From Clostridia bacterium (lineage in GTDB: Bacteria > Bacillota > Clostridia > Christensenellales > Aristaeellaceae), in NCBI GenBank assembly GCA_030530315.1, contig JAUMVG010000002.1:99691-134358 (forward strand): a stretch of 34,668 nt of DNA, given 5' to 3'. Positions within the stretch are counted from its first letter, which is position 1. Each line of letters opens with the position of its first letter. Shown one piece after another: positions 699 to 34,417 of the stretch. A model generated the notes under the pieces. The model made no database searches. It saw nothing but the letters and a program-made list of their open reading frames with translations, and had not been told where the DNA came from. The translations under genes and the position numbers were made by a program.

Positions 699-1625
699 AT
701 GTATCAATCTCTTTCTTTGACTTCATTCATTGAGACTTGGCTTAATACCTTCAAATCCACGGCGGTAAAGCAATCCACCTATGACCGCCTGATAACGTCA
801 TTAAAGGCGCTGGAAGGCTTCACAATCGCTTCAAAGGCCATAGGCGAGATAACCGCCGTAGATATACAGAACTATGTAAATGACCTTACGCAATGCGGCT
901 ACGGGCTTTCCACGATAAAGAAGCAAATGCGGATTGTCACAGCGCCATTGAAACAGGCGGCGGCGCTGCATTGGATTCCCGCTAACCCTGCGGTGGGAAT
1001 CACGTTGCCCGCGAAAAGCAACGTCAAGAAGGAATCGCAGGCTGTCGAGGCGTATTCGCCCGACGAACAAAAGGCGCTTGCGGCGGTGCTGGATTCCCGT
1101 GGACGTCGAGGCTTCGCCGCCGTCGCACTGATGATTGAAACAGGCTTGCGCGTGGGCGAGGCGCTGGCGCTTCGATGGTGTGACGTGCAGTTGCCGCGCC
1201 GCCGCCTGACGGTTCGCGCTACTGTCGTTCGGTTGGCGAACAAAAAGCAATCCTTTGTCCAGCAGGACGCAAAGAGCGTCAGCAGTAACAGGGTTGTGCC
1301 GCTGACGCCCGCCGCCGTTGCCCTGTTGGAAGGTTTGAGAATTGACAATGACAGCGAATGGGTTTTTACAGATGAACAGGGCGAACGTTTGAGTTACGAG
1401 GCGTTACGGTATCAAACGAAGGTTGCGTGCGCGGCGGCGGGCGTGGAATATCGCGGGATGCACGTTTTTCGGCACACCTTCGCAACGAACTGTTATTACA
1501 AAGGGATGGACGTTAAAATTTTGTCAAGGCTGCTCGGGCACGCCGATGTGAATATAACCTACAACATATACGTGCATTTATACGGCGACGGCTTTGAGGA
1601 AATGTACAGCGCACTGGTTAAATAG
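699..1625 (+). CDS. Tyrosine recombinase / phage-type integrase
   Basis: A 308-residue site-specific recombinase that would insert or excise a mobile element through a covalent 3'-phosphotyrosyl intermediate. Residues 1-105 resemble the SAM-like core-binding domain (alpha-helical, with a typical NYVNDL segment). Residues 115-308 are the catalytic domain, with the expected residues visible: R151 in TGLRVGEAL, a candidate K192, H255 and R258 in HVFRHTF, H281 in LGHADV and nucleophile Y291 in NIYVH. The ATG at 699 has an AAAGGA site about 8 bases upstream. The gene points at tRNA-Trp and stops 44 bases before the 3' end of that tRNA, the usual place for the integrase of a tRNA-targeted island or ICE. 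No excisionase or relaxase is seen, since the element would extend left of the window. Confidence 0.93.
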   Translation: MYQSLSLTSFIETWLNTFKSTAVKQSTYDRLITSLKALEGFTIASKAIGEITAVDIQNYVNDLTQCGYGLSTIKKQMRIVTAPLKQAAALHWIPANPAVGITLPAKSNVKKESQAVEAYSPDEQKALAAVLDSRGRRGFAAVALMIETGLRVGEALALRWCDVQLPRRRLTVRATVVRLANKKQSFVQQDAKSVSSNRVVPLTPAAVALLEGLRIDNDSEWVFTDEQGERLSYEALRYQTKVACAAAGVEYRGMHVFRHTFATNCYYKGMDVKILSRLLGHADVNITYNIYVHLYGDGFEEMYSALVK

Positions 1626-21894: not shown

Positions 21895-21939
21895 GCCTGT
21901 GAAATATATTTCAAATCAATGACGAAAGGAATGATGATA

Positions 21940-23121
21940 GTGAAATTTTTGAGAAAGACGGCCGCGCTGTGCCTGTGCATCCTGCTTGCGGCCTTTGCGT
22001 TGGCGGAGGGAAGCGTCTCCGTTGGTCAAACGAGCGGCGGCGCGCTGGAGGTCAGCTGGAGCGGCGCGGGCTGCGGAAGCTGCGAATTGACGATCTATCG
22101 GGACGGCTGGCCGCTGTGCGTGCGGAGCGCCGAGGGTGACAGCGGAACGCTGTACTTCGACATCAGCGCCAATCCGGGCACCTACAAGGCGCGGCTGAAG
22201 ACGGATACGGGCTGCGTCACCTCCGGGGAGGTCACCCTGTCCCGGACCGAAGAACCCGTGCGGACGCCGGAGCCCACGGCTCAGCCCGAGTCCACCGAAG
22301 CGCCGTACCTTGTGGAAGAACCCGCGTATCCTCAAGATCCAGCCGTAACGCCGGAGCAGGATACCCTGGAGCCGGCGGCCACCGAGCAGCCGGACGGCGC
22401 CGGATCGCCGGAATGTGATCCCGGAGAAAATGCGCAACATGATTGCGAACCGACGCCCGAAGCCAACGGTAACGGCGAACCTGTGGGAACGCCGACCGCA
22501 ACCCCGACACCTGAGACATCTGCCACGGTGGAACCCACGGTGACGTCAACCGCTGTCCCGAAGCCCACGGCGACTGCCACGGCGGAACCCACGGTGACGC
22601 CGACCGCAGGCCCGACACCCACGGCGACTGCCACGGCGGAACCCACGGTGACGCCGACCGCAGCACCGGCGCCCACGGCGACCATCAGGCCGACGGAGAC
22701 GCCGACTCCCACCGCGAGGCCGGTACATACCAGCGCCCCGACCGCTATACCTTCGGGTGAGGCGCGCGATGCCCTGGCGGAGGAGGTCATCTCCCAGGTC
22801 AACGCCGAGCGGGCCAAGCAGGGCCTGAAGCCCCTGAGCGTCAGCGCGGAGCTGAACCGGGCCGCCGAGGTCCGCGCGGGAGAGATCGCTGTCAGCTTCT
22901 CCCACACGCGCCCGGACGGCACCGCCTGGAGCACCGTGAGCGATGCTGCCTACGGCGAGAATATCGCCATGGGCCAGCGGACCGCGGACAAGGTGATGGC
23001 TGCCTGGATGAGTTCCGATGGCCATCGGGCGAACATACTGCACGCGAGCTACGGCACCATCGGCTTGTGCGCCTATGTCAGCGGCGGCGTGACCTATTGG
23101 GTCCAACTGTTCGGCAGGTGA
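21940..23121 (+). CDS. Secreted CAP/SCP-domain protein with Thr/Pro repeat linker
   Basis: A 393-residue exported protein. A signal peptide (KFLRKTAALCLCILLAAFALA) is followed by a small cysteine-containing beta domain (about 23-105, perhaps FN3- or Ig-like). A Thr/Pro/Glu-rich stalk comes next, including three 18-residue tandem units, and then a CAP/SCP domain (about 272-393) with NAERAKQGLKPL, FSHTRPDG, YGENIA and SDGHRANIL, which contain the conserved His and Glu residues. Bacterial CAP proteins of this YkwD type are common at Firmicute surfaces, with roles mostly unproven. I favour the GTG at 21940, 9 bases after AAAGGA; ATGs at 21934 and 21931 are too close to it. No sortase or lipobox anchor is visible. 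Confidence 0.88.
   Translation: MKFLRKTAALCLCILLAAFALAEGSVSVGQTSGGALEVSWSGAGCGSCELTIYRDGWPLCVRSAEGDSGTLYFDISANPGTYKARLKTDTGCVTSGEVTLSRTEEPVRTPEPTAQPESTEAPYLVEEPAYPQDPAVTPEQDTLEPAATEQPDGAGSPECDPGENAQHDCEPTPEANGNGEPVGTPTATPTPETSATVEPTVTSTAVPKPTATATAEPTVTPTAGPTPTATATAEPTVTPTAAPAPTATIRPTETPTPTARPVHTSAPTAIPSGEARDALAEEVISQVNAERAKQGLKPLSVSAELNRAAEVRAGEIAVSFSHTRPDGTAWSTVSDAAYGENIAMGQRTADKVMAAWMSSDGHRANILHASYGTIGLCAYVSGGVTYWVQLFGR
22531..22692 (+). repeat. Three 54-base tandem repeats in the CAP-protein stalk
   Basis: Copies at 22531-22584, 22585-22638 and 22639-22692 encode 18-residue units of the type EPTVTPTAGPTPTATATA. The first two copies differ at a few bases and the third diverges near its end. 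The unit is a multiple of three, so copy-number change would alter stalk length without a frameshift. Confidence 0.9.
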
Positions 23122-25602: not shown

Positions 25603-27381
25603 TTATGCGTCCTCCGACTGGTACATGCGGTACAGGTTGTAGTAGACGCCCTTCTTCGCCATCAGCGCGTCATGGCTGCCCTGCTCGACGATGCCCTCGT
25701 CGGTGAGGACCAGTATCGTCGCCGCCCCGCGAATGGTGGTCAGGCGGTGGGCGATGGTGAAGGTGGTCCGGCCCTTCATCAGCCCCTCCAGGGACTGCTG
25801 CACCAGGTGCTCGGATTCGTTGTCCAGGGCGCTGGTGGCCTCGTCCAGGATCAGGATCGGGGGATTCTTCAGGAACACCCGGGCGATGGAGATGCGCTGC
25901 TTCTGTCCGCCGGAGAGCTTCACGCCATGCTCGCCGACATAGGTGTCGTAGCCGTTTTCCAGCTCCGAGATGAACTCGTGGGCGCCGGCCAGCTTGGCCG
26001 CTTGGATGATCTCCTCCCGGCTGGCGCCGGGACGGCCGTACTCGATGTTGGTCAGCACCGTGCCGGAGAAGAGGTAGACGTCCTGCTGCACCATGCCGAT
26101 CTGCTTGCGCAGCGAGTGGAGGGTGTAGTCGCGGATGTCCGTGCCGTCGATGCGGATGACGCCGGAGGTGACCTCGTAGAAGCGGGGGATCAGGTTGCAC
26201 AGCGTGGTCTTGCCGCCGCCGGAGGGCCCCACCAGGGCCACGCTCTCGCCGGGATTGACGTGGAGGTTGATGTGGCTCAGCACATTGGTGCCGCCGTCGT
26301 CATAGGCAAAGGAGACGTCGTCGAATTCCAGTTCGCCGGAGACGTCCTTCAGCTCCCTGGCGCCGGGCAGGTCGTGGATGGCGACCGGCTCCTCCATGAC
26401 CTCGGCGAAGCGCTCGATGCCGGTGATGCCCCGCTGGAAGTTCTCGGTGAACTCCACCAGGCGGCGCACGGAGGCCAGCAGCGTGGTCACATACAGCAGA
26501 TAGGCCACGAGGTCCGCGGCGGAGATGCGGCCCTGGATCATGAAGATGGCCCCGACGCACACCACCAGGATGTACATGATGCCGTCGAACATGCGGGTGA
26601 CGGAGTGGAAGCCGGCCATGTTGTGGTACATGCGGCGCTTGACGTCCAGGAAGGCGCAGTTGCCTTCGGCGAACTTTTCCTCTTCGATGTCCTCGTTGGC
26701 GAAGGACTTGACCACGCGAATGCCGGACAGGCTGTCCTCCACCCGGGCGTTGATCTCGCCCAGCTGGTGGCGGGAGTCCTTGAAGGACTTGCGCATGGGC
26801 TTGGCGAAGTGGTCCGAGCACACCACCATCAGTGGCAGGGACGCGAATATGATCAGCGTCAGGGGGATGTTCATGCCGCAGAGGATCACAAAGGCCACGA
26901 CCACCTTGATGCTGGTGATGAACAGCTCCTCCGGGAAGTGATGGGCGAATTCGGTGATGTCAAACAGGTCGCTGGTGATGCGGGACATCAGCTGGCCGAT
27001 CTTCGTCTTGCTGTAGTAGGCGTGAGGGAGCTTCTGCATGTGGGCAAAGAGGTCCCGGCGCATGTCGGTCTCGATGTGCGTGCCCATAATGTGGCCCACG
27101 GACTGCATGAAGTAGTTGGCGGCCGTGTCCACGATGCGCAGTGCCACGTAGAGCAGGCTGAGCTTCACCACGGTGGCGATGGTCAGCGCGGCGAGGTTCG
27201 TGGTGCCCAGGTTGGTGATGTAGCGCACGATCAGCGGCAGGACGAGGTCGCAGATCGTAGTCAGCGACGCGCAGAAAAGGTCCAGCAGCAGAACCGGCAG
27301 GCGTGGTTTGAAATAGGGCAGAAAGTGCCTGAAGATGCGCAGGTTGTCCCGCATCGTGCGCTTTTGGGCCGTGTTCTGCAT
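25603..27381 (-). CDS. ABC transporter, fused permease and ATPase (half-transporter)
   Basis: A 592-residue exporter subunit. Residues 1-320 carry about six transmembrane helices of the ABC type 1 exporter fold. The nucleotide-binding domain (about 350-590) has Walker A GPSGGGKTT near 385, the Q-loop MVQQDVYLFSG, the signature LSGGQKQR near 488, Walker B LILDEATSALD near 512 and the switch histidine in IAHRL. It would work as a homodimer, since no second half-transporter gene is adjacent. Resembles MsbA/YheI-type exporters of lipids, peptides or drugs; the substrate is unknown. AAAGGAG precedes the ATG and a good promoter lies 40 bases further upstream. Confidence 0.96.
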   Translation of the reverse strand: MQNTAQKRTMRDNLRIFRHFLPYFKPRLPVLLLDLFCASLTTICDLVLPLIVRYITNLGTTNLAALTIATVVKLSLLYVALRIVDTAANYFMQSVGHIMGTHIETDMRRDLFAHMQKLPHAYYSKTKIGQLMSRITSDLFDITEFAHHFPEELFITSIKVVVAFVILCGMNIPLTLIIFASLPLMVVCSDHFAKPMRKSFKDSRHQLGEINARVEDSLSGIRVVKSFANEDIEEEKFAEGNCAFLDVKRRMYHNMAGFHSVTRMFDGIMYILVVCVGAIFMIQGRISAADLVAYLLYVTTLLASVRRLVEFTENFQRGITGIERFAEVMEEPVAIHDLPGARELKDVSGELEFDDVSFAYDDGGTNVLSHINLHVNPGESVALVGPSGGGKTTLCNLIPRFYEVTSGVIRIDGTDIRDYTLHSLRKQIGMVQQDVYLFSGTVLTNIEYGRPGASREEIIQAAKLAGAHEFISELENGYDTYVGEHGVKLSGGQKQRISIARVFLKNPPILILDEATSALDNESEHLVQQSLEGLMKGRTTFTIAHRLTTIRGAATILVLTDEGIVEQGSHDALMAKKGVYYNLYRMYQSEDA

Positions 27382-27664: not shown

Positions 27665-27694
27665 TTGACAATTTAATGGAAAGTGCTGTAAAAT
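27665..27694 (+). promoter_or_regulatory. Promoter of the caspase/Ig-protein gene
   Basis: A consensus TTGACA (27665-27670), an 18-base spacer and TAAAAT (27689-27694), 43 bases before the start codon. AAGGAG at 27724-27729 is the ribosome site. Confidence 0.8.
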
Positions 27695-27737
27695 ATAGAC
27701 TGTATAGATGTATGTAATGGCATAAGGAGAATGCGCC

Positions 27738-30700
27738 ATGAAGAGAACACTGTGTTTACTGCTCGCGTTGATGCTGGTGACCTCCGCGCTGCCGGTCGTT
27801 TCGACGGCTGCGTATGCGGAAGCCGGGATCGAGATCGAGACGGATATGGACGGCGAGGTGCTTCCCGCGGAGGATGCGGGGGATACCGGTCTTGTCGTTG
27901 AGGAGATCGAGACGGACCTGCCCGGCGAGAATGCGCCGCAGACACAGCCGGAGTCGGAACCTTCCATCGAACCTGCTCAGGAAGAAGCGGTCCGCTATGC
28001 CCGCGCCCTGGACGCCCTTTCCATTTACAAGGCGCCTGACCTGCGGGAGAGGTGTGCCGTTCTTCCCAAAGAGAGCGTCGTGCTCGTTCTGGAGGCCGAC
28101 GAGGTCTGGATGCGCGTGGCCGTGAATACCCGGAAGGGCGTCGTCGAGGGCTATGTCGCCATCGACGCGGTTGAGGCGCTGACCGGCGAGGCCCTCGATC
28201 GCTTCCTTGACGACCTCGCCGTGAACGGCGTGGACGCCCTCTATAATGACGATATCAACCTGCCCCTTGCCACCGTCGAGGCGGCGTTCGACGGCGACGC
28301 GGCGGAAGCCGCGCCTCAGCAGCCGGCAGAGGGGGAGGGCGGCGAAGGAGCCGCGCCCGATGCTCCCGGGCAGGGCGATCCCATGACCGAGCCCGAAAGC
28401 GGCGCGCAGGCTCCTGAGGAGCCCACCGGTACCTCCGAGGCCGATGCGCAGTCTCTCCAGGGGGACGCCCTTGACGGCGCTGAACCCACGGCCGAACCGA
28501 CAGCCGCACCCACCGTGGAGCCGACTGCCGAGCCCACCGCTGCTCCGACGGCTGAGCCGACGGCAGTACCTACCGCAGTGCCGACATCTGTGCCAACGGC
28601 TGCGCCTACTGAGGCGCCAACTGCCGCGCCGACGGCAGCGCCCACCGCTGTTCCGACGGCAGCACCCACCGCCGCGCCGACGGCAGCACCTACCGCGGCC
28701 CCTACCGCTGTTCCGACGGTTGTGCCGACTGCCGTGCCAACGGCTGCGCCCACCGTCGCCCCTGCGGAAGATCCTGCGGATGACGGCGAGCACGCCGTGC
28801 TGGCAGCGGAGTCCGGAAGCCCCGCCGCGCCTGGCGATCCCACCGACCTGGTGCTCAGCGCGGCCGAGATCACCGTGGGCGTCAAGGAAAAATACACGCT
28901 GCTGACGGCGACCCTCGTTCCCGCCAACAGCACCACCACCATCACCTGGCGCACCAGCAAGGCGAAGGTCGCCAAGGTCAACGCCGCCACCGGCGTGGTC
29001 GCCGGCGTCAAGGCCGGCACCGCCATCATCTATGCCACCACGGCCAACGGCATCGAGAAGAGCTGCAAGGTGACTGTGAAGAAGGCCCCCTCCAAGGTGA
29101 CGCTGAATACCAAGAAGGTGACCATCGCCGCGGGCGGCCAGACCTACCAACTGAAAGCCACCCTGCCGAAAAAGACCGCCTCCACGCTGACCTACACCTC
29201 CTCCAACGTGAATGTCGTCAGGGTGGATGCCAGCGGTCTGATCACCGGCGTCGCCCCCGGTTCCGCCACGGTCACCGTGTCCACCTTCAATAAGAAGAAG
29301 GCCAAGTGCAAGGTGAAGGTCATTGCCGCGCCGGACCAGGTGTTCCTGCCGGAAGCGATCACCATCGGCGAACAGCAGCACTACAAGCTGGCGGCGTCCG
29401 TGGTCGGCGTCAACAACGCTGAATCCTCCTCCACCTATACCTTTACCGCCGAGAACGGCACCGGGGCTATCACCGTCGATCCCACCACCGGCGAGGTCGT
29501 GGGCATCAAGCCCGGCACGGCCAAGGTGCGGGTCAGGACCTACAACGGCGTGACCACTCATCTGAAGGGCAGCGTGCGGACGGAGACCGTCTGCACGGTG
29601 ACCGTCGTGGAGGCGCCGGTGGAGATCAAGCTGGCGACGAACAGCGTGTCCATCGGCGTGAAGCAGACCCTGGCGCTGTATCCGCAGATGATCTCCTCCA
29701 AGGGCGCCGTGATGACCGGCGTGGACTACACGATCACCAGCAGCAACAAGAAAAAGCTGTCCGTCAGCGCCGACGGCGTCGTGAAGGGCATCAAGACCGG
29801 CACATTCAAGGTGACCGTGAAGGCTTACAACGGCGTGTCCGCGGTATGTACGGTGAAGGTGGTCAAGGCTCCCTCCAAGGTCACCCTTTCGCCCTCGAAG
29901 CCCACCATCGGCGTGGGCCAGACCACGAAGCTCGCGGTGAAGTTCCCCAAGGGCGGCCTGGCGAGCTATACCTTCTCCAGCAGCGACACGACCGTCGTCG
30001 CCGTGGACAGCGCGGGCAACATCACCGGCCTGAAACAGGGCTCGGCCACCGTCACGGTGAAGACCAGCAACGGCAAGAAGGCCAAGGCCACTGTAAAGGT
30101 CTCCCGGGCACCGGGCTACCTGAACCTGAACGCGGACTACGACCTGGAGTTCGACCCGATCAACAACAGCTACAGCACCGTCTACAAGAAGACGCTGAAC
30201 CCCGGCGGCACGTTCCAGCTCGCCTATGAAAACGAGTACCAGACCTACGGCGGCGTGGCGTCCTATCAGTCAAAGAATCCCGCCGTGGCCACTGTCAGCA
30301 CCAGCGGCCTGATCACCGCCGTCGCTCCGGGCACCGCCGACATCATCGTGAAGTCCACCGGCGGCGCGGAAGCCCTCTGCCGGGTGACCGTGGCCGGCGC
30401 GCTGCCCGCCTCCATCGCCTTCAACGGCGCGGACGCCACCGTGCGCGTGGGCCAGAGCATCGCCATGCCCGCGCTGAAGGGCGCGAACATCACCGCCGCC
30501 CAGCTGTCGGCGGCCACCTACGCCACCGGCAACGCTGGAATCGTCGTGGCGGAGTGGGTCGAGGCGGACGCTCAGTGGAAGCTGCGGGGCGTGAGCGCCG
30601 GCGCCACCACCGTGACCGCCACGGCGGCGGGCGCCACGGCCACGCTGAACGTGACGGTCACCGCAGCGAACCTGCCCTCCACGGAGCTGCACTTTGAGAA

Positions 30701-32246
30701 CGCCACGGTCTACATGTCGCTGAACCAGGTGTGGAAGCCCGTGGTGAAGGATGAATATGACGTGACCGTAAACGCGTCGCTGACCTCGGACAAGCCCGAG
30801 ATCGTGGCCGTGACGACCTCCGGCGAACTGAAGGGCGTCGCCGAGGGCAAGGCCGTCATTACGGCGGCCAGCGGCAGCCTGACGGCGAAGATGACCGTCT
30901 GCGTGCAGACCTCCGGCGCAACCGTCCAGCTGACTCCGGCAACCCTCAAGCTGGCTGTCGGACAGCGCGGGAGCGTGAAGGCCACCGTGAACAACGACGG
31001 CGCTTCCTCGCAGCTGACCTTTGCCACCTCCAATGCCTCCGTGGCCACCGTCAACGCCGCCGGCGTGGTCGTCGCCCGCGCGGCGGGCAGCGCCACCATC
31101 ACGGCCACCGCCTACAACGGCGCGACCGCGACCTGCGCGGTGACCGTCACCAAGGCGCCCAGCAAGGTCGTCCTCGAGCCCGCCGCTATCACCGGCCGGG
31201 TGGGGGACGCCGGCGTGCAGCTGAAGTGGAGCTTCGGCGCGTCCGACGAGACGGGCACCGTGACCTTCTCCTCCAGCAACACGGGCATTGCCTCCGTCAG
31301 CGCTGCCGGCGTCGTGACCCTCGCGGCAGTGGGCACCGCCACGGTGACCGCCCAGACCCACAACGGCCTGACGGCGACCATCGACGTGACCGTGCTGCCC
31401 AAGAAGCCGGAGTCCACCACGCCGAAGTACCGCCTGTTCGCGGCCTACAGCTACTTCGATTCAAGCTACAAGGGTTACATTCCCTTCACCCGCAACAACG
31501 CCGAGAGCGTCGCGAGCACCTTCCAGAAATCCAGCATCAGCGGCATCGGCTACAGCACGAAGGTGATGGGGAACCCGTCCAAGACGCAGCTGCTGTCCGG
31601 CATTTCCAGTTACTTCTCCGGGACCACGGACAAGGACGTCAGCATCGTGTACCTGTGCTCCCACGGACACATGACTGGCAGCTACACCGGCTACCGAATG
31701 TCCCTGCCGGGCTATGACGAAAACCCGAACAACGCCAACTACTACATGACCTCCTCGGAGATCTTCAACTGCATCAGCCGCATCAACGGCAACGTCATAC
31801 TGATCCTCGACTCCTGCTACAGCGGCACCTTCCTGCAGGATATGCAGAGCAGGCTGAACGCCCAGGGCGGCCGGATCGCCGTGATGACCGCGGCCTCCGA
31901 CACCCGCGCCACCTTCTACAAGGTCAGCGACACCAACAAGTCCGTGGACTTCTTCACGTTCTTCCTGCTGCAGGGCCTCGGCTACAACTCCAAGAGCCAT
32001 TGGTGGAACAGCAACGCCAGCGGCAGCGCCGGCAAGTACCCGGGCTACCTGGCGGCGGACCAGGCCGGCAACAAGGATGGCATCGTGACGCTGGGCGAGT
32101 TCTATGACTTCGCCGCCAAGAGCATCGCCGCCAACATTCCGAATTACATGAAGAAGAGCTGGTACTGGGGCGATACAAAGCGCGTGCAGGTGCCGCGCTT
32201 CAGCGCCGGCAGCCTGCGGGACCTCGTGATCTACAAGGCGGGCTGA
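27738..32246 (+). CDS. Secreted SH3b / Ig-like array protein with C-terminal caspase-like peptidase domain
   Basis: A 1502-residue exported protein. A signal peptide (about 1-28, ending TAAYAEA) is followed by an SH3b-like domain at 87-148 and an acidic segment, then by a Thr/Pro/Ala stalk at 249-342. About ten Big2-type Ig-like modules of roughly 85 residues each lie at 371-1223; many end in VKVVKAP- or VTVTKAP-type joints. Residues 1230-1502 are a caspase-like (clan CD, C14) domain: YRLFAAYSYF opening strand, SHGH with catalytic H1309, and LDSCYSGTF with D1358 and catalytic C1360. SH3b and Big2 domains suggest cell-wall or surface placement, though no LPXTG, SLH or lipobox signal is seen. 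Substrate is unknown. A homologue might be annotated as caspase family protein or Ig-like domain protein. Confidence 0.9.
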   Translation: MKRTLCLLLALMLVTSALPVVSTAAYAEAGIEIETDMDGEVLPAEDAGDTGLVVEEIETDLPGENAPQTQPESEPSIEPAQEEAVRYARALDALSIYKAPDLRERCAVLPKESVVLVLEADEVWMRVAVNTRKGVVEGYVAIDAVEALTGEALDRFLDDLAVNGVDALYNDDINLPLATVEAAFDGDAAEAAPQQPAEGEGGEGAAPDAPGQGDPMTEPESGAQAPEEPTGTSEADAQSLQGDALDGAEPTAEPTAAPTVEPTAEPTAAPTAEPTAVPTAVPTSVPTAAPTEAPTAAPTAAPTAVPTAAPTAAPTAAPTAAPTAVPTVVPTAVPTAAPTVAPAEDPADDGEHAVLAAESGSPAAPGDPTDLVLSAAEITVGVKEKYTLLTATLVPANSTTTITWRTSKAKVAKVNAATGVVAGVKAGTAIIYATTANGIEKSCKVTVKKAPSKVTLNTKKVTIAAGGQTYQLKATLPKKTASTLTYTSSNVNVVRVDASGLITGVAPGSATVTVSTFNKKKAKCKVKVIAAPDQVFLPEAITIGEQQHYKLAASVVGVNNAESSSTYTFTAENGTGAITVDPTTGEVVGIKPGTAKVRVRTYNGVTTHLKGSVRTETVCTVTVVEAPVEIKLATNSVSIGVKQTLALYPQMISSKGAVMTGVDYTITSSNKKKLSVSADGVVKGIKTGTFKVTVKAYNGVSAVCTVKVVKAPSKVTLSPSKPTIGVGQTTKLAVKFPKGGLASYTFSSSDTTVVAVDSAGNITGLKQGSATVTVKTSNGKKAKATVKVSRAPGYLNLNADYDLEFDPINNSYSTVYKKTLNPGGTFQLAYENEYQTYGGVASYQSKNPAVATVSTSGLITAVAPGTADIIVKSTGGAEALCRVTVAGALPASIAFNGADATVRVGQSIAMPALKGANITAAQLSAATYATGNAGIVVAEWVEADAQWKLRGVSAGATTVTATAAGATATLNVTVTAANLPSTELHFENATVYMSLNQVWKPVVKDEYDVTVNASLTSDKPEIVAVTTSGELKGVAEGKAVITAASGSLTAKMTVCVQTSGATVQLTPATLKLAVGQRGSVKATVNNDGASSQLTFATSNASVATVNAAGVVVARAAGSATITATAYNGATATCAVTVTKAPSKVVLEPAAITGRVGDAGVQLKWSFGASDETGTVTFSSSNTGIASVSAAGVVTLAAVGTATVTAQTHNGLTATIDVTVLPKKPESTTPKYRLFAAYSYFDSSYKGYIPFTRNNAESVASTFQKSSISGIGYSTKVMGNPSKTQLLSGISSYFSGTTDKDVSIVYLCSHGHMTGSYTGYRMSLPGYDENPNNANYYMTSSEIFNCISRINGNVILILDSCYSGTFLQDMQSRLNAQGGRIAVMTAASDTRATFYKVSDTNKSVDFFTFFLLQGLGYNSKSHWWNSNASGSAGKYPGYLAADQAGNKDGIVTLGEFYDFAAKSIAANIPNYMKKSWYWGDTKRVQVPRFSAGSLRDLVIYKAG
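28482..28763 (+). repeat. Degenerate 12-base repeats coding for the (E/A/V)PTA stalk
   Basis: About 23 copies of a 12-base unit encode APTA, EPTA or VPTA tetrapeptides (residues 249-342). Third-base differences between copies are common, so the array is old or under selection against slippage, but near-identical stretches remain around 28620-28730. Changes of 12 bases would stay in frame and alter stalk length. Confidence 0.9.
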
Positions 32247-32273: not shown

Positions 32274-32303
32274 GGGCGGCCGGAGTGAAATTTCCGGCCG
32301 CCC
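32274..32303. terminator. Probable terminator after the caspase/Ig-protein gene
   Basis: An 11-base GC-rich stem, GGGCGGCCGGA (32274-32284) with TCCGGCCGCCC (32293-32303), has an 8-base loop. No strong T-tract follows on either strand, so efficiency is uncertain. It lies between two convergent genes. Confidence 0.6.
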
Positions 32304-32476: not shown

Positions 32477-34258
32477 TCAATGGGACTTGCCTGCGCCTTC
32501 TTCGTCTGCGCTGTCGAGGATCAGCCGCTGCAGGGCGCTGCTCACGTCTCCGTTGTCCGACAGGCCCCTTGCTTCGAGGAACAGCCTGATGGCGTCCGCG
32601 GTTTCCCCATCGAAGCGCCCATGGCTGGGGCCCTCGTAGCAGCCGAGGGCGATCAGCGCACGCTGAATCGCCGCCACGGCGGGGCTCTCGTCGCCTTCGC
32701 ACAGCGTCACCCGCGTGCCGGTGATGGCGTCGCTTTCAAAGATCGCCTCCTGGAGCGTTTCTGAGGCCTCGCCGGTGGGGGTCAAGCCGACGGCCTCCTG
32801 GTAGGCGCAGACCGCTTCGGCGGTTGTTTCGTCGTATTGCAGGCCGATCGCGCCGGTGTAGAAGCCCAGGGCGCGAAGGCGCATTTGCAGCGTCGGCACC
32901 GCTTCACCAAAGCAGTGGGTGTTCAGCGCGGCGGAGGCCGCGATGTCCACGCGATGTCCCCAAAAGCATTCGGAGACCTCGCTGCGGGAGATGTTCAGGT
33001 GGATGTTGGCGATATAGCCCGCACGTCCGCCGTAGTCCACCCGGCTCCAGCCGACCTTTCGCTCGATCAGCTGTACCGGCGTGTTCCTGTGAACGGTGGT
33101 CAGCTTGCGGCTGAAGGACGAGGCCGCCTGAAAGAGGGGCGCCTCGTTGATCGTGACCGCGGTGACGGATTCATAGCTCAGCGTGGCCTGCTCGATGCCG
33201 CCCTCGGGGAAACGCTCCGTGAGAGTGCGATGCAGCGCTTCCACGGCGCCGCGAAGCTCAGGACCGGCCTGCTGGCTGGGCTCTGCGCCCGTGCATTCGC
33301 AGAAGGTGCGCACCGACTGCGCCAGCGCGTCGGAGTAGACGCCGTCCGCCATGCCGCCGTAGAGGCCGATGTCCCCGAGCCTTTCCTGGAGGGCGACGAC
33401 CAGAGGCCCTCGCATGCCGATGTCCAGCACAGTATCGTCTGCGACGGGGCTGTCCTCATTCAGTATGGCGTCGATCTGCGCCTCGGTGGCGACGCCGGTA
33501 GCCGCCTCGCCGCGGGCAGCCTGGTAGCGCATAACGGATGTGAGGGTCGGCAGGTCATAGATCCCGGACACGCTGCCCGTGAGGAAGCCGAGGCCGCCCA
33601 AACGCTGTTGAAGCGCGGTGACGGCGTCGCCGCTGTCGCCGCGGCCCAATTCGCCCTCGCTGTGCGCGGCAAAGTCGCTTGATATGAACTGGTCGTAGGT
33701 CAGTCCGCAGTCTTCGGTGAAACTGCCGATGGCCAGCAGGCGCTTGAGCTCATCCCGGGGCTTTTCGCCGTAGAATATGCGCACCTCTGTGCCGACGGGA
33801 CAGTTGTCCGCGATCCACTTCGCGTCCTGCCAGTAGAGGCGGATGCAGCCGTGGGAGACCGCCTTGCCCATGCCGGAGGCCGCCTCCTGGTCCAGGGTGC
33901 TCATATCCTTCTCCGCGTAGGGGAGAGAGTGGAAGAGTATCGGGCCGCGGATGCGTGTGGCGTATTTTACGTAGCAGCGATAGCTGGTGATGTAATACCA
34001 CTCCACGCGGTCGGTATCCGGGCGGGTCTGCTCCATGTGAAAGGTGCCCTCGGGGGTGGCGTTGTTGGCACCGCTGGAACAGATCATCTGCCGCGCGACG
34101 GAGCCGTCCTGGGCATGGTAGACCGTGGTAATCTGGTTGAGCAGGTCCACCTCGATCCTGTAGGGATCGTTGTCTATCGCCAGGGCGTTGGTCGATCCCG
34201 CAAGGGAAAGCCCGAGCAGCGCCAGGACGGCGAACAGGCATATCAGGCGATTGTGCAT
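32477..34258 (-). CDS. L,D-transpeptidase (YkuD) with four PG-binding domains and an SH3b domain
   Basis: A 593-residue exported cell-wall enzyme that would make 3-3 peptidoglycan cross-links or attach proteins to the wall. A signal peptide covers about residues 1-27 (LICLFAVLALLGLSLAG core). The YkuD domain at about 33-175 has the catalytic motif SHGCIRL at 135-141 with C138 and H136. Then come two peptidoglycan-binding type 1 domains (about 208-340; ALQQRLGGLGF, ALQERLGDIGLY), an SH3b domain (about 370-435; GWSRVDYGGRAGYI) and two more PG-binding domains to the end. The frame extends 43 codons upstream but GGAGG lies 6 bases before the ATG at 34258, and the signal peptide starts there. It is convergent with the caspase/Ig gene and divergent from tRNA-Lys. 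Confidence 0.93.
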   Translation of the reverse strand: MHNRLICLFAVLALLGLSLAGSTNALAIDNDPYRIEVDLLNQITTVYHAQDGSVARQMICSSGANNATPEGTFHMEQTRPDTDRVEWYYITSYRCYVKYATRIRGPILFHSLPYAEKDMSTLDQEAASGMGKAVSHGCIRLYWQDAKWIADNCPVGTEVRIFYGEKPRDELKRLLAIGSFTEDCGLTYDQFISSDFAAHSEGELGRGDSGDAVTALQQRLGGLGFLTGSVSGIYDLPTLTSVMRYQAARGEAATGVATEAQIDAILNEDSPVADDTVLDIGMRGPLVVALQERLGDIGLYGGMADGVYSDALAQSVRTFCECTGAEPSQQAGPELRGAVEALHRTLTERFPEGGIEQATLSYESVTAVTINEAPLFQAASSFSRKLTTVHRNTPVQLIERKVGWSRVDYGGRAGYIANIHLNISRSEVSECFWGHRVDIAASAALNTHCFGEAVPTLQMRLRALGFYTGAIGLQYDETTAEAVCAYQEAVGLTPTGEASETLQEAIFESDAITGTRVTLCEGDESPAVAAIQRALIALGCYEGPSHGRFDGETADAIRLFLEARGLSDNGDVSSALQRLILDSADEEGAGKSH

Positions 34259-34313
34259 CTCTATCCTCCGGGAGTGTTTGGACTGGCGGCGATCAACGCC
34301 GGCCACACAGACA

Positions 34314-34342
34314 ATTTTATTGTTTTCCGGCTGCAAATGCAA
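34314..34342 (-). promoter_or_regulatory. Promoter of the L,D-transpeptidase gene
   Basis: Read on the minus strand: TTGCAT (34342-34337), a 17-base spacer and TAAAAT (34319-34314), about 56 bases before the start codon. Confidence 0.75.
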
Positions 34343-34417
34343 TGCAGTGGCCGGCTTTTTACACAGAATATACAAAAATATGCGCACAAATAAACGTGCG
34401 CCAGAGGGCGAAATGTA

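What the first reader, a model, noticed from the sequence alone, without database searches (positions are those of the whole stretch)
27738..32246. Secreted caspase-like protease at the tip of a ten-module Ig-like array
One reading frame joins a signal peptide, an SH3b-like domain, a Thr/Pro/Ala stalk, about ten Big2-type modules and a C-terminal domain with a caspase dyad (H1309 in SHGH, C1360 in DSCYSG). Most bacterial caspase-like proteins I know of are intracellular and often linked to defence or signalling. This one is built like a surface filament carrying a protease head, perhaps for wall protein processing, attack on neighbours or host contact. The domain reading is from sequence; the function is inference.
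Basis: partly seen in the sequence, partly recalled or inferred. Interest (0 to 1): 0.78.

Follow-up and report, generated by a model that had tools for sequence, protein, structure and literature searches.

The report
Secreted caspase-like protease on Ig-domain stalk
A bacterium whose near relatives come from the rumen exports a large protein that carries a caspase-like protease, with an added calcium-binding-type loop, at the end of a chain of immunoglobulin-like modules, which points to an outside-the-cell use for an enzyme fold best known from cell death.

Summary
One 1502-residue frame (27738-32246, +) joins a signal peptide, an SH3b-like domain, a Thr/Pro/Ala stalk, ten Big2-type modules and a C-terminal caspase-fold domain with H1309 and C1360. 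A predicted model matches bacterial caspase GSU0716, MALT1, caspases and metacaspase 9. The domain occurs in 23 of 27 other same-genus genomes; a profile finds related domains in 188 of 200 genomes of the bacterial family, against 28 of 299 in a phylum sample (own genome counted; profile built from the family). His and Cys are kept in 67 of 67 aligned rows. New here: the same rows keep Asp and Glu of an EF-hand-type loop, not seen in most cytosolic relatives. Best reading: an exported, probably calcium-dependent caspase-type protease acting outside the cell, most likely on surface or wall proteins; activity, calcium dependence and substrate are inferred. Caspase homologues with Ig-like domains or EF-hands are reported in archaea, and extracellular ones in bacteria, so this is a new variant of a known kind. 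SH3b is in only some orthologues, and 22 of 40 sampled family relatives show no Big2. Nothing supports attack on neighbours.

The parts
27665..27694 (+). promoter-like site TTGACA-18-TAAAAT
   Evidence: consensus scan, 11 of 12 positions; 3 sites found against a mean of 0.8 in shuffles of the scanned region; not proof of function
27724..27729 (+). ribosome-binding site AAGGAG, 8 bases before ATG
   Evidence: sequence read directly
27738..32246 (+). whole reading frame, 1502 aa
27738..27818 (+). signal peptide, residues 1-27 (cut probably after AYA)
   Evidence: hydrophobic peak at residues 4-24, no other segment as strong; cleavage site is inference
27996..28178 (+). SH3b-like domain, about residues 87-147
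   Evidence: AlphaFold2 pLDDT 83.6; Foldseek best E 0.007, hits mostly SH3/SH3b domains; no Pfam SH3 match
28482..28772 (+). Thr/Pro/Ala stalk, residues about 249-345
   Evidence: Pfam PT repeat E 6.9e-14; longest T/P/A/E/V/S/Q run 97 residues
28839..31415 (+). ten Big2-type Ig-like modules, residues 368-1226
   Evidence: PF02368 E 9.9e-46; segmentation and own profile
31425..32237 (+). caspase-like (C14-type) domain, residues 1230-1500
31662..31664 (+). catalytic His codon, H1309
   Evidence: 67 of 67 rows
31815..31817 (+). catalytic Cys codon, C1360
   Evidence: 67 of 67 rows
32058..32099 (+). EF-hand-type loop D1441-E1454 (DQAGNKDGIVTLGE, two residues longer than the canonical loop)
   Evidence: first Asp and last Glu in 67 of 67 rows; Pfam EF-hand_6 and EF-hand_1 each match 2 of 17 aligned sequences
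32274..32303 (.). 10-pair G+C-rich inverted repeat between the convergent genes, possible terminator
   Evidence: read from sequence; not in the list of the terminator scan, no T run follows
25603..27381 (-). ABC transporter, divergent neighbour conserved in the genus
   Evidence: PF00664/PF00005; found in 15 of 16 orthologue loci
32477..34387 (-). YkuD L,D-transpeptidase with peptidoglycan-binding and SH3 domains, convergent neighbour
   Evidence: PF03734 5.5e-20, PF01471 3e-39; in 11 of the 14 orthologue records that run at least 1 kb past the gene, and in 1 of 7 more distant same-genus loci (L037-L043)

Best explanation
It is an exported caspase-type (C14-like) cysteine protease carried at the C-terminal end of a stalk of Ig-like modules. 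The signal peptide takes it across the membrane; in this sub-lineage an SH3b-like domain may hold the N-terminal end in the wall, while the Big2 array holds the protease away from it. The protease carries an EF-hand-type loop after the catalytic Cys, at a place where cytosolic C14 relatives have a turn without those acidic residues; it probably binds calcium and makes the enzyme stable or active only in the calcium-rich outside. The likely job is processing or shedding of the cell's own surface and wall proteins, a stable housekeeping task. Shown: architecture, predicted fold, conserved dyad and loop, synteny, purifying selection. Inferred: export, proteolysis, calcium dependence, anchoring, substrate.
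For: Fold: model pLDDT 78.1, pTM 0.85; Foldseek top hits GSU0716 (3bij, 1.5e-6), MALT1, caspases 4/9/11, metacaspase 9; 99 hits at E <= 0.001. Dyad 67 of 67 and first Asp and last Glu of the loop 67 of 67. In 17 further loci 13 have dyad plus strict loop by pattern, and a fourteenth (L191) has both by eye. Phylum C14 sample: strict loop in 11 of 14 exported and 2 of 11 non-exported proteins, Fisher p 0.005. Two paralogues in the same genome pass Pfam C14 (7.9e-12, 1.1e-12), and all four detected copies have Big2 modules plus a C-terminal caspase-like domain. Upstream synteny. dN/dS of the protease domain 0.10-0.20 in four pairs. Neighbour is an L,D-transpeptidase.
Against: No assay. The window copy gives no Pfam C14 match and stays far below the NF047832 cut-off. 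One of the two acidic S1 residues of metacaspases is Asn here (N1254), so activity and specificity may differ. The EF-type loop of the window has a two-residue insertion. SH3b is absent from 7 of the 15 N-termini aligned, so this anchor cannot be general. YkuD is missing in 3 of 14 orthologue loci and in 6 of 7 more distant same-genus loci. By my profile 22 of 40 sampled family relatives have no Big2 module. The 67 rows are mostly strong profile matches. The phylum test counts related proteins as independent. Signal peptides rest on hydropathy only.
Confidence: 0.5

Rival explanations
1. An exported C14 protease that is not calcium-controlled: the EF-type loop is only a structural turn, and the enzyme is active once folded, as reported for cyanobacterial orthocaspases.
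For: Orthocaspases are described as calcium-independent and self-processing (PMC5756287, passages). The loop in the window is longer than the canonical EF loop.
Against: The first Asp and last Glu are as invariant as the catalytic dyad (67 of 67), and the loop goes with export in the phylum sample.
Confidence: 0.25
2. A digestive or host-contact protease: it degrades feed proteins, mucins or other microbes' proteins for nutrition or adhesion.
For: Of the 16 titled orthologue records, 2 name rumen, 1 jejunum, and 13 bear RUG names, recalled as rumen MAG sets; stalks of 4 to 10 Big2 modules in the orthologues; a relative in another genus has a BspA-type LRR match below cut-off.
Against: Strong conservation of the domain in the genus suits a narrow substrate better than bulk digestion; inference only.
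Confidence: 0.15
3. A contact-dependent toxin against neighbours, the stalk delivering a protease tip.
For: Architecture only: long stalk plus C-terminal enzyme.
Against: Next genes are an ABC transporter and YkuD, no immunity-like gene recognised; same upstream neighbours in the genus; low dN/dS in the tip; no PADLOC family; the tip aligns throughout the orthologues and is not swapped.
Confidence: 0.05
4. A structural adhesin whose caspase-like head no longer cleaves.
For: Asn in place of one acidic S1 residue (N1254); pseudo-orthocaspases are known in bacteria (PMC6426788, passages).
Against: His and Cys invariant in 67 of 67; the pseudo-forms in that paper have a changed dyad.
Confidence: 0.05

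Closest known systems
Archaeal orthocaspases with N-terminal Big_7 Ig-like domain (15 proteins) or EF-hand motif (7 proteins), PMC6426788
   Same: Prokaryotic caspase homologue with intact His-Cys dyad joined to bacterial Ig-like domains; EF-hand motifs occur in the same set.
   Different: Archaea, Big_7 and not Big2; the passages read do not say whether Ig-like domain and EF-hand share a protein or where the EF-hand lies; they describe no 10-module array and no family-wide spread.
Peptidase C14 of bacteria (metacaspase/orthocaspase; solved example GSU0716, 3bij)
   Same: Fold by Foldseek, His-Cys dyad, two paralogues over the Pfam C14 cut-off.
   Different: Exported-type N-terminus, Ig-like stalk, EF-type loop, one acidic S1 residue replaced (N1254); the window copy itself has no Pfam C14 match.
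Exported C14 proteins of other members of the phylum (e.g. L144, L152, L160)
   Same: Exported-type N-terminus and an EF-type loop after the dyad.
   Different: Lipobox-like N-terminus by eye, about 400-450 aa frames, pocket Asp kept in these three.
Azospirillum filamentous-haemagglutinin-type proteins with a C-terminal caspase-like domain (WP_246024560.1, WP_246457274.1)
   Same: Adhesin-type protein (by its annotation) ending in a caspase-like domain with AGHG and DSCYSG.
   Different: Alphaproteobacteria; the EF-type loop is not seen in the C-terminal parts read.
MALT1 paracaspase (caspase plus Ig domains)
   Same: Foldseek match at E 2.5e-6; Ig-like and caspase domains in one protein.
   Different: Intracellular animal signalling protein (recalled), 9-12 % identity in the listed matches.

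Membership tests
Peptidase C14 (caspase-like) | caspase-haemoglobinase fold | tested here: met
   AlphaFold2 pTM 0.85, Foldseek E 1.5e-6 to 3bij, TM-scores by query length 0.38-0.60 in the 50 listed; second aligner not available
Peptidase C14 (caspase-like) | catalytic His-Gly and Asp-x-Cys-x-Ser-Gly-type dyad motifs | tested here: met
   H and C in 67 of 67 rows
Peptidase C14 (caspase-like) | Pfam PF00656 gathering score | tested here: not met
   no PF00656 match for the window protein or domain at E <= 0.1; 6 of 17 aligned sequences match at E <= 0.1, best 6.1e-8; two own-genome paralogues pass
Peptidase C14 (caspase-like) | cysteine-peptidase activity | not testable with these tools
   needs an assay
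Orthocaspase (acidic S1 pocket for basic P1 residues) | both pocket Asp residues (TbMC2 D95 and D211, per PMC6426788 section 17) | tested here: not met
   D211 position kept as D1358; D95 position is N1254 by alignment, Asn in 17 of 17 rows
Orthocaspase | calcium-independent activity (PMC5756287) | not testable with these tools
   EF-type loop argues against it, but only an assay decides
Metacaspase | p10 domain with the conserved calcium-binding residues (280-loop) | not tested
   no p10 profile was applied
Clostripain (C11) | Pfam PF03415 | tested here: not met
   2 of 17 members match at E <= 0.1, best 0.034; none for the window
Legumain (C13) | Pfam PF01650 gathering score | tested here: not met
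   18.4 bits against 22.8 for the window domain; 17 of 17 match at E <= 0.1, best 5.9e-5, scores of the others not shown, so the best may reach the cut-off
EACC1-associated caspase (NF047832) | NCBIfam cut-off 140 bits | tested here: not met
   49.3 and 52.5 bits
Big2 (PF02368) Ig-like repeat protein | several modules over the cut-off | tested here: met
   154 bits against 22.8, six stretches significant on their own
Bacterial SH3b | profile or fold match | tested here: inconclusive
   no Pfam SH3 match; PDB profile search best is a spectrin SH3 at E 0.27; fold matches mostly SH3/SH3b but best E 0.007
Exported protein | signal peptide | tested here: met
   hydropathy only, no dedicated predictor available

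The most novel reading that the evidence does not exclude
Export itself is the activation switch: a broad group of exported bacterial caspases carries an EF-hand-type loop, so the protease is idle in the calcium-poor cytoplasm and turns on in the calcium-rich outside. One bacterial family has made this its standard extracellular protease, with 1 to 9 copies in the genomes that have it, some on stalks of up to about 23 Ig-like modules.
Probability: 0.35. Interest if true: 0.72.

Novelty: new variant of a known kind. Interest (0 to 1): 0.52.

Why it matters
Prokaryotic caspase homologues are discussed above all for cell death and stress, and orthocaspases are described as calcium-independent. 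A lineage in which 188 of 200 sampled genomes encode such a domain, with an EF-type loop in the copies examined, gives a direct test of whether prokaryotic caspases can be calcium-gated and what they do outside the cell. The association of loop and export across the phylum is easy to check on larger sets.

Tried and rejected
Defence role: PADLOC gave no family for the domain or whole protein. Phage origin: no tblastn match in the phage collection of 50,697 records. Plasmids: 4 records, all Azospirillum. Clostripain or legumain as the true family: weak matches only, window copy under the C13 cut-off, and none of the 50 listed fold matches bears either name. PDB sequence searches: the best hits were a phosphofructokinase-2/bisphosphatase (E 0.43 with the single sequence, 0.011 with the profile), which I judge chance, and metacaspase-4 at E 1.4. 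Toxin with exchangeable tip: not supported. A second look with VIA-align could not be run.

Rows left out: loci L021-L036 were dropped before the alignment as repeats of L005-L020 (matching identities and frame lengths; not compared base by base). One search examined 30 loci, all those with a locus id apart from the own genome's; 5 (L139, L150, L157, L161, L178) were set aside because the pattern found no dyad; L150 and L161 carry a strict EF-type loop by the earlier scan. After the strict count I looked at four loci that broke the pattern: L140 and L142 (exported, counted as without loop) have EF-type loops with insertions, L159 (counted as cytosolic) has a lipobox-like stretch in another frame just upstream, L147 stays unresolved; L146 was not looked at again. 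These later looks are not in the p value. L003 was first read on the wrong strand and corrected.

Full report
What is there. The frame 27738-32246 (+) encodes 1502 residues with a good ribosome-binding site and a promoter-like site upstream. Residues 1-27 look like a signal peptide; the next hydrophobic stretch is clearly weaker and there is no LPxTG motif. Residues 82-186 were modelled with 8 sequences (pLDDT 83.6) and resemble SH3 and bacterial SH3b domains, weakly (best E 0.007); no SH3 family of Pfam matches any of the 8 members. A Thr/Pro/Ala stalk follows (PT repeat), then ten Big2-type modules (residues 368-1226), then the caspase-like domain.

The caspase reading. By sequence the window domain reaches no curated cut-off: Pfam C13 18.4 bits against 22.8, NF047832 52.5 bits against 140 with E 4.3e-14, no C14 match. 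Among the 17 aligned sequences at E <= 0.1, C13 matches 17 (best 5.9e-5), C14 matches 6 (best 6.1e-8), C11 matches 2 (0.034). The structure model from 17 sequences (mean pLDDT 78.1, pTM 0.85) finds the caspase fold: the Geobacter protein GSU0716 first (E 1.5e-6), then MALT1, caspases including 4, 9 and 11, and metacaspase 9 among the 50 listed; 99 matches at E <= 0.001. TM-scores are moderate (0.38-0.60 by query length). H1309 and C1360 follow predicted strands 77-83 and 128-134 of the domain, as in caspases (recalled).

Spread. At E <= 1e-10 the domain is found in 23 of 27 other genomes of the genus (misses G003, G007, G009, G012) and in one genome of another genus of the family. In the titled collection 16 orthologue loci came back: 2 titles name rumen, 1 jejunum, 13 bear RUG names, which I recall as rumen MAG sets. 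A profile of 12 family sequences (A2) finds matches at E <= 1e-8 in 188 of 200 family genomes, in 18 of 200 order genomes, of which 5 lie outside the family, and in 28 of 299 phylum genomes; the own genome is counted in each. The profile is built from the family, so part of the contrast is bias. The neutral Pfam C14 model finds 22 of 299 (E <= 1e-8) and 28 of 398 (E <= 1e-6) phylum genomes, own included, but in the own genome only one of four copies, so it gives no family figure. The four own copies have 10, 2, 3 and 2 Big2 modules and all end in the caspase-like domain. In 40 family proteins taken from the listed matches, 18 have 1 to 23 Big2 modules by a profile made from the window's own modules and 22 have none detected; in 5 of the 22 (L109, L116-L119) the caspase-like domain lies near the N-terminus. 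So the Big2 stalk is common but not universal. A crude pattern sees a signal-like start in 33 of these 40; three of the seven misses are frames cut by the end of the fetched stretch or record.

Conserved and variable parts. Among 16 orthologues the Big2 count is 4 to 10, incomplete frames included. SH3b is seen in 8 of 15 aligned N-termini (window, L005, L006, L008, L009, L012, L013, L017) and not in L007, L014-L016, L018-L020; the longest stalk-like run varies from under 15 to 97 residues. dN/dS by a simple count in four close pairs is 0.10-0.20 for the protease, 0.12-0.39 for the Big2 region and 0.19-0.40 for the N-terminus; in three of the four pairs protease and Big2 differ little (some frames include a few codons before the start). 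The head is constant in layout while the stalk changes in length, and both are under purifying selection.

The EF-hand-type loop. In A2, D1441 and E1454 are among 14 invariant columns, with the catalytic His and Cys. In 67 aligned rows (window, 16 orthologues, 10 same-genus or paralogous proteins, 40 family proteins) His, Cys, the loop's first Asp and last Glu are each 67 of 67, with contexts such as DSNGDGKVTVSE. These rows are mostly strong matches. In 17 further loci, some weak and some from outside the family, 13 have dyad and strict loop; L191 has both by eye; L185 and L186, with no signal-like start, have the dyad but no loop; L187 shows neither. In the phylum C14 sample, 25 of 30 loci had a dyad by pattern: strict loop in 11 of 14 exported and 2 of 11 non-exported (Fisher p 0.005). 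Relatedness was not corrected for. In the alignment (12 family sequences, 15 of the 30 phylum loci) several cytosolic proteins show a turn such as NLVGDITPGSIY in the same place.

Pocket. PMC6426788 (section 17 read) names C92, D95, S159 and D211 of a trypanosome metacaspase as pocket residues, the two Asp accommodating basic residues. The D211 position is D1358 here. The D95 position, within GCVNDA in 7 of the 15 phylum sequences aligned, aligns with N1254, Asn in 17 of 17. Arg/Lys specificity should therefore not be assumed.

Neighbourhood. MatE - rRNA methylase - ABC transporter upstream and a convergent YkuD L,D-transpeptidase downstream. The ABC gene is found in 15 of 16 orthologue loci (L011's record starts inside the caspase gene). 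YkuD is found in 11 of the 14 that run on for at least 1 kb (not in L007, L010, L018; L005 and L014 end too soon), and in 1 of 7 more distant same-genus loci, L037 to L043, of which those with full flanks show 1.5 kb. Two of the three own paralogues sit beside housekeeping genes, named from recall of the sequences (translation factors; SRP-type GTPase); the third lies on a 4.8-kb contig. This looks like vertical inheritance, not a mobile or exchanging toxin.

How it probably works. Exported unfolded, held by or near the wall, folded with calcium outside, cleaving surface or wall proteins at the end of a flexible stalk. Calcium gating fits the loop and the export association but is inferred; the substrate is unknown and the wall link rests on the SH3b-like domain and the YkuD neighbour, neither of which is general.

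What is known. PMC6426788 (passages and section 17) reports archaeal orthocaspases with Big_7 (15) and EF-hand motifs (7). PMC3501461 (passages) reports 30 sequences in an extracellular class among 671 and suggests surface or fratricidal roles. PMC5756287 (passages) describes orthocaspases as calcium-independent, and metacaspases, with one exception, as calcium-dependent. PMC4933709 (passages) speculates on extracellular protein degradation. My searches for a Big2-caspase or an EF-bearing exported bacterial caspase listed no paper that by title or abstract start is on it; the library holds open-licence papers only, and papers other than the four named were seen as listings only. The finding is therefore a new variant of a known kind, with a testable new regularity.

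Noticed in passing
L180:3701-4603 and L181:3701-4714 (Azospirillum plasmids): Proteins annotated as filamentous-haemagglutinin N-terminal domain-containing end in a caspase-like domain (AGHG, DSCYSG): an adhesin-type protein with a caspase tip in Alphaproteobacteria.
   Followed up: partly
L139-L161, L173-L179: In C14 proteins of the phylum an EF-hand-type loop goes with an exported N-terminus, many of them lipobox-like by eye.
   Followed up: partly
L086 (3399 aa), L081 (2374 aa), L114 (2382 aa): Very long proteins with a C-terminal caspase-like domain in the same bacterial family, with 21, 23 and 8 Big2 modules found by profile.
   Followed up: no
L109, L116-L119: About 470-500-residue relatives with a signal-like start, the caspase-like domain near the N-terminus and no Big2 found: another layout in the same family.
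   Followed up: no
L126:2349-5975 (-): Relative in another genus with Big2 modules has a BspA-type LRR match at its N-terminus, below the cut-off.
   Followed up: no
window 21919-23121 (+): 400-aa protein with a C-terminal CAP domain (PF00188).
   Followed up: no
window 699-1625 (+): Phage-integrase-family recombinase (PF00589) near the left end of the window.
   Followed up: no
window 32477-34387 (-): L,D-transpeptidase with four significant peptidoglycan-binding stretches and an SH3 domain.
   Followed up: no
L159, upstream of the C14 frame: A lipobox-like stretch lies in another frame just before the caspase frame, so this gene is probably broken or mis-assembled.
   Followed up: no
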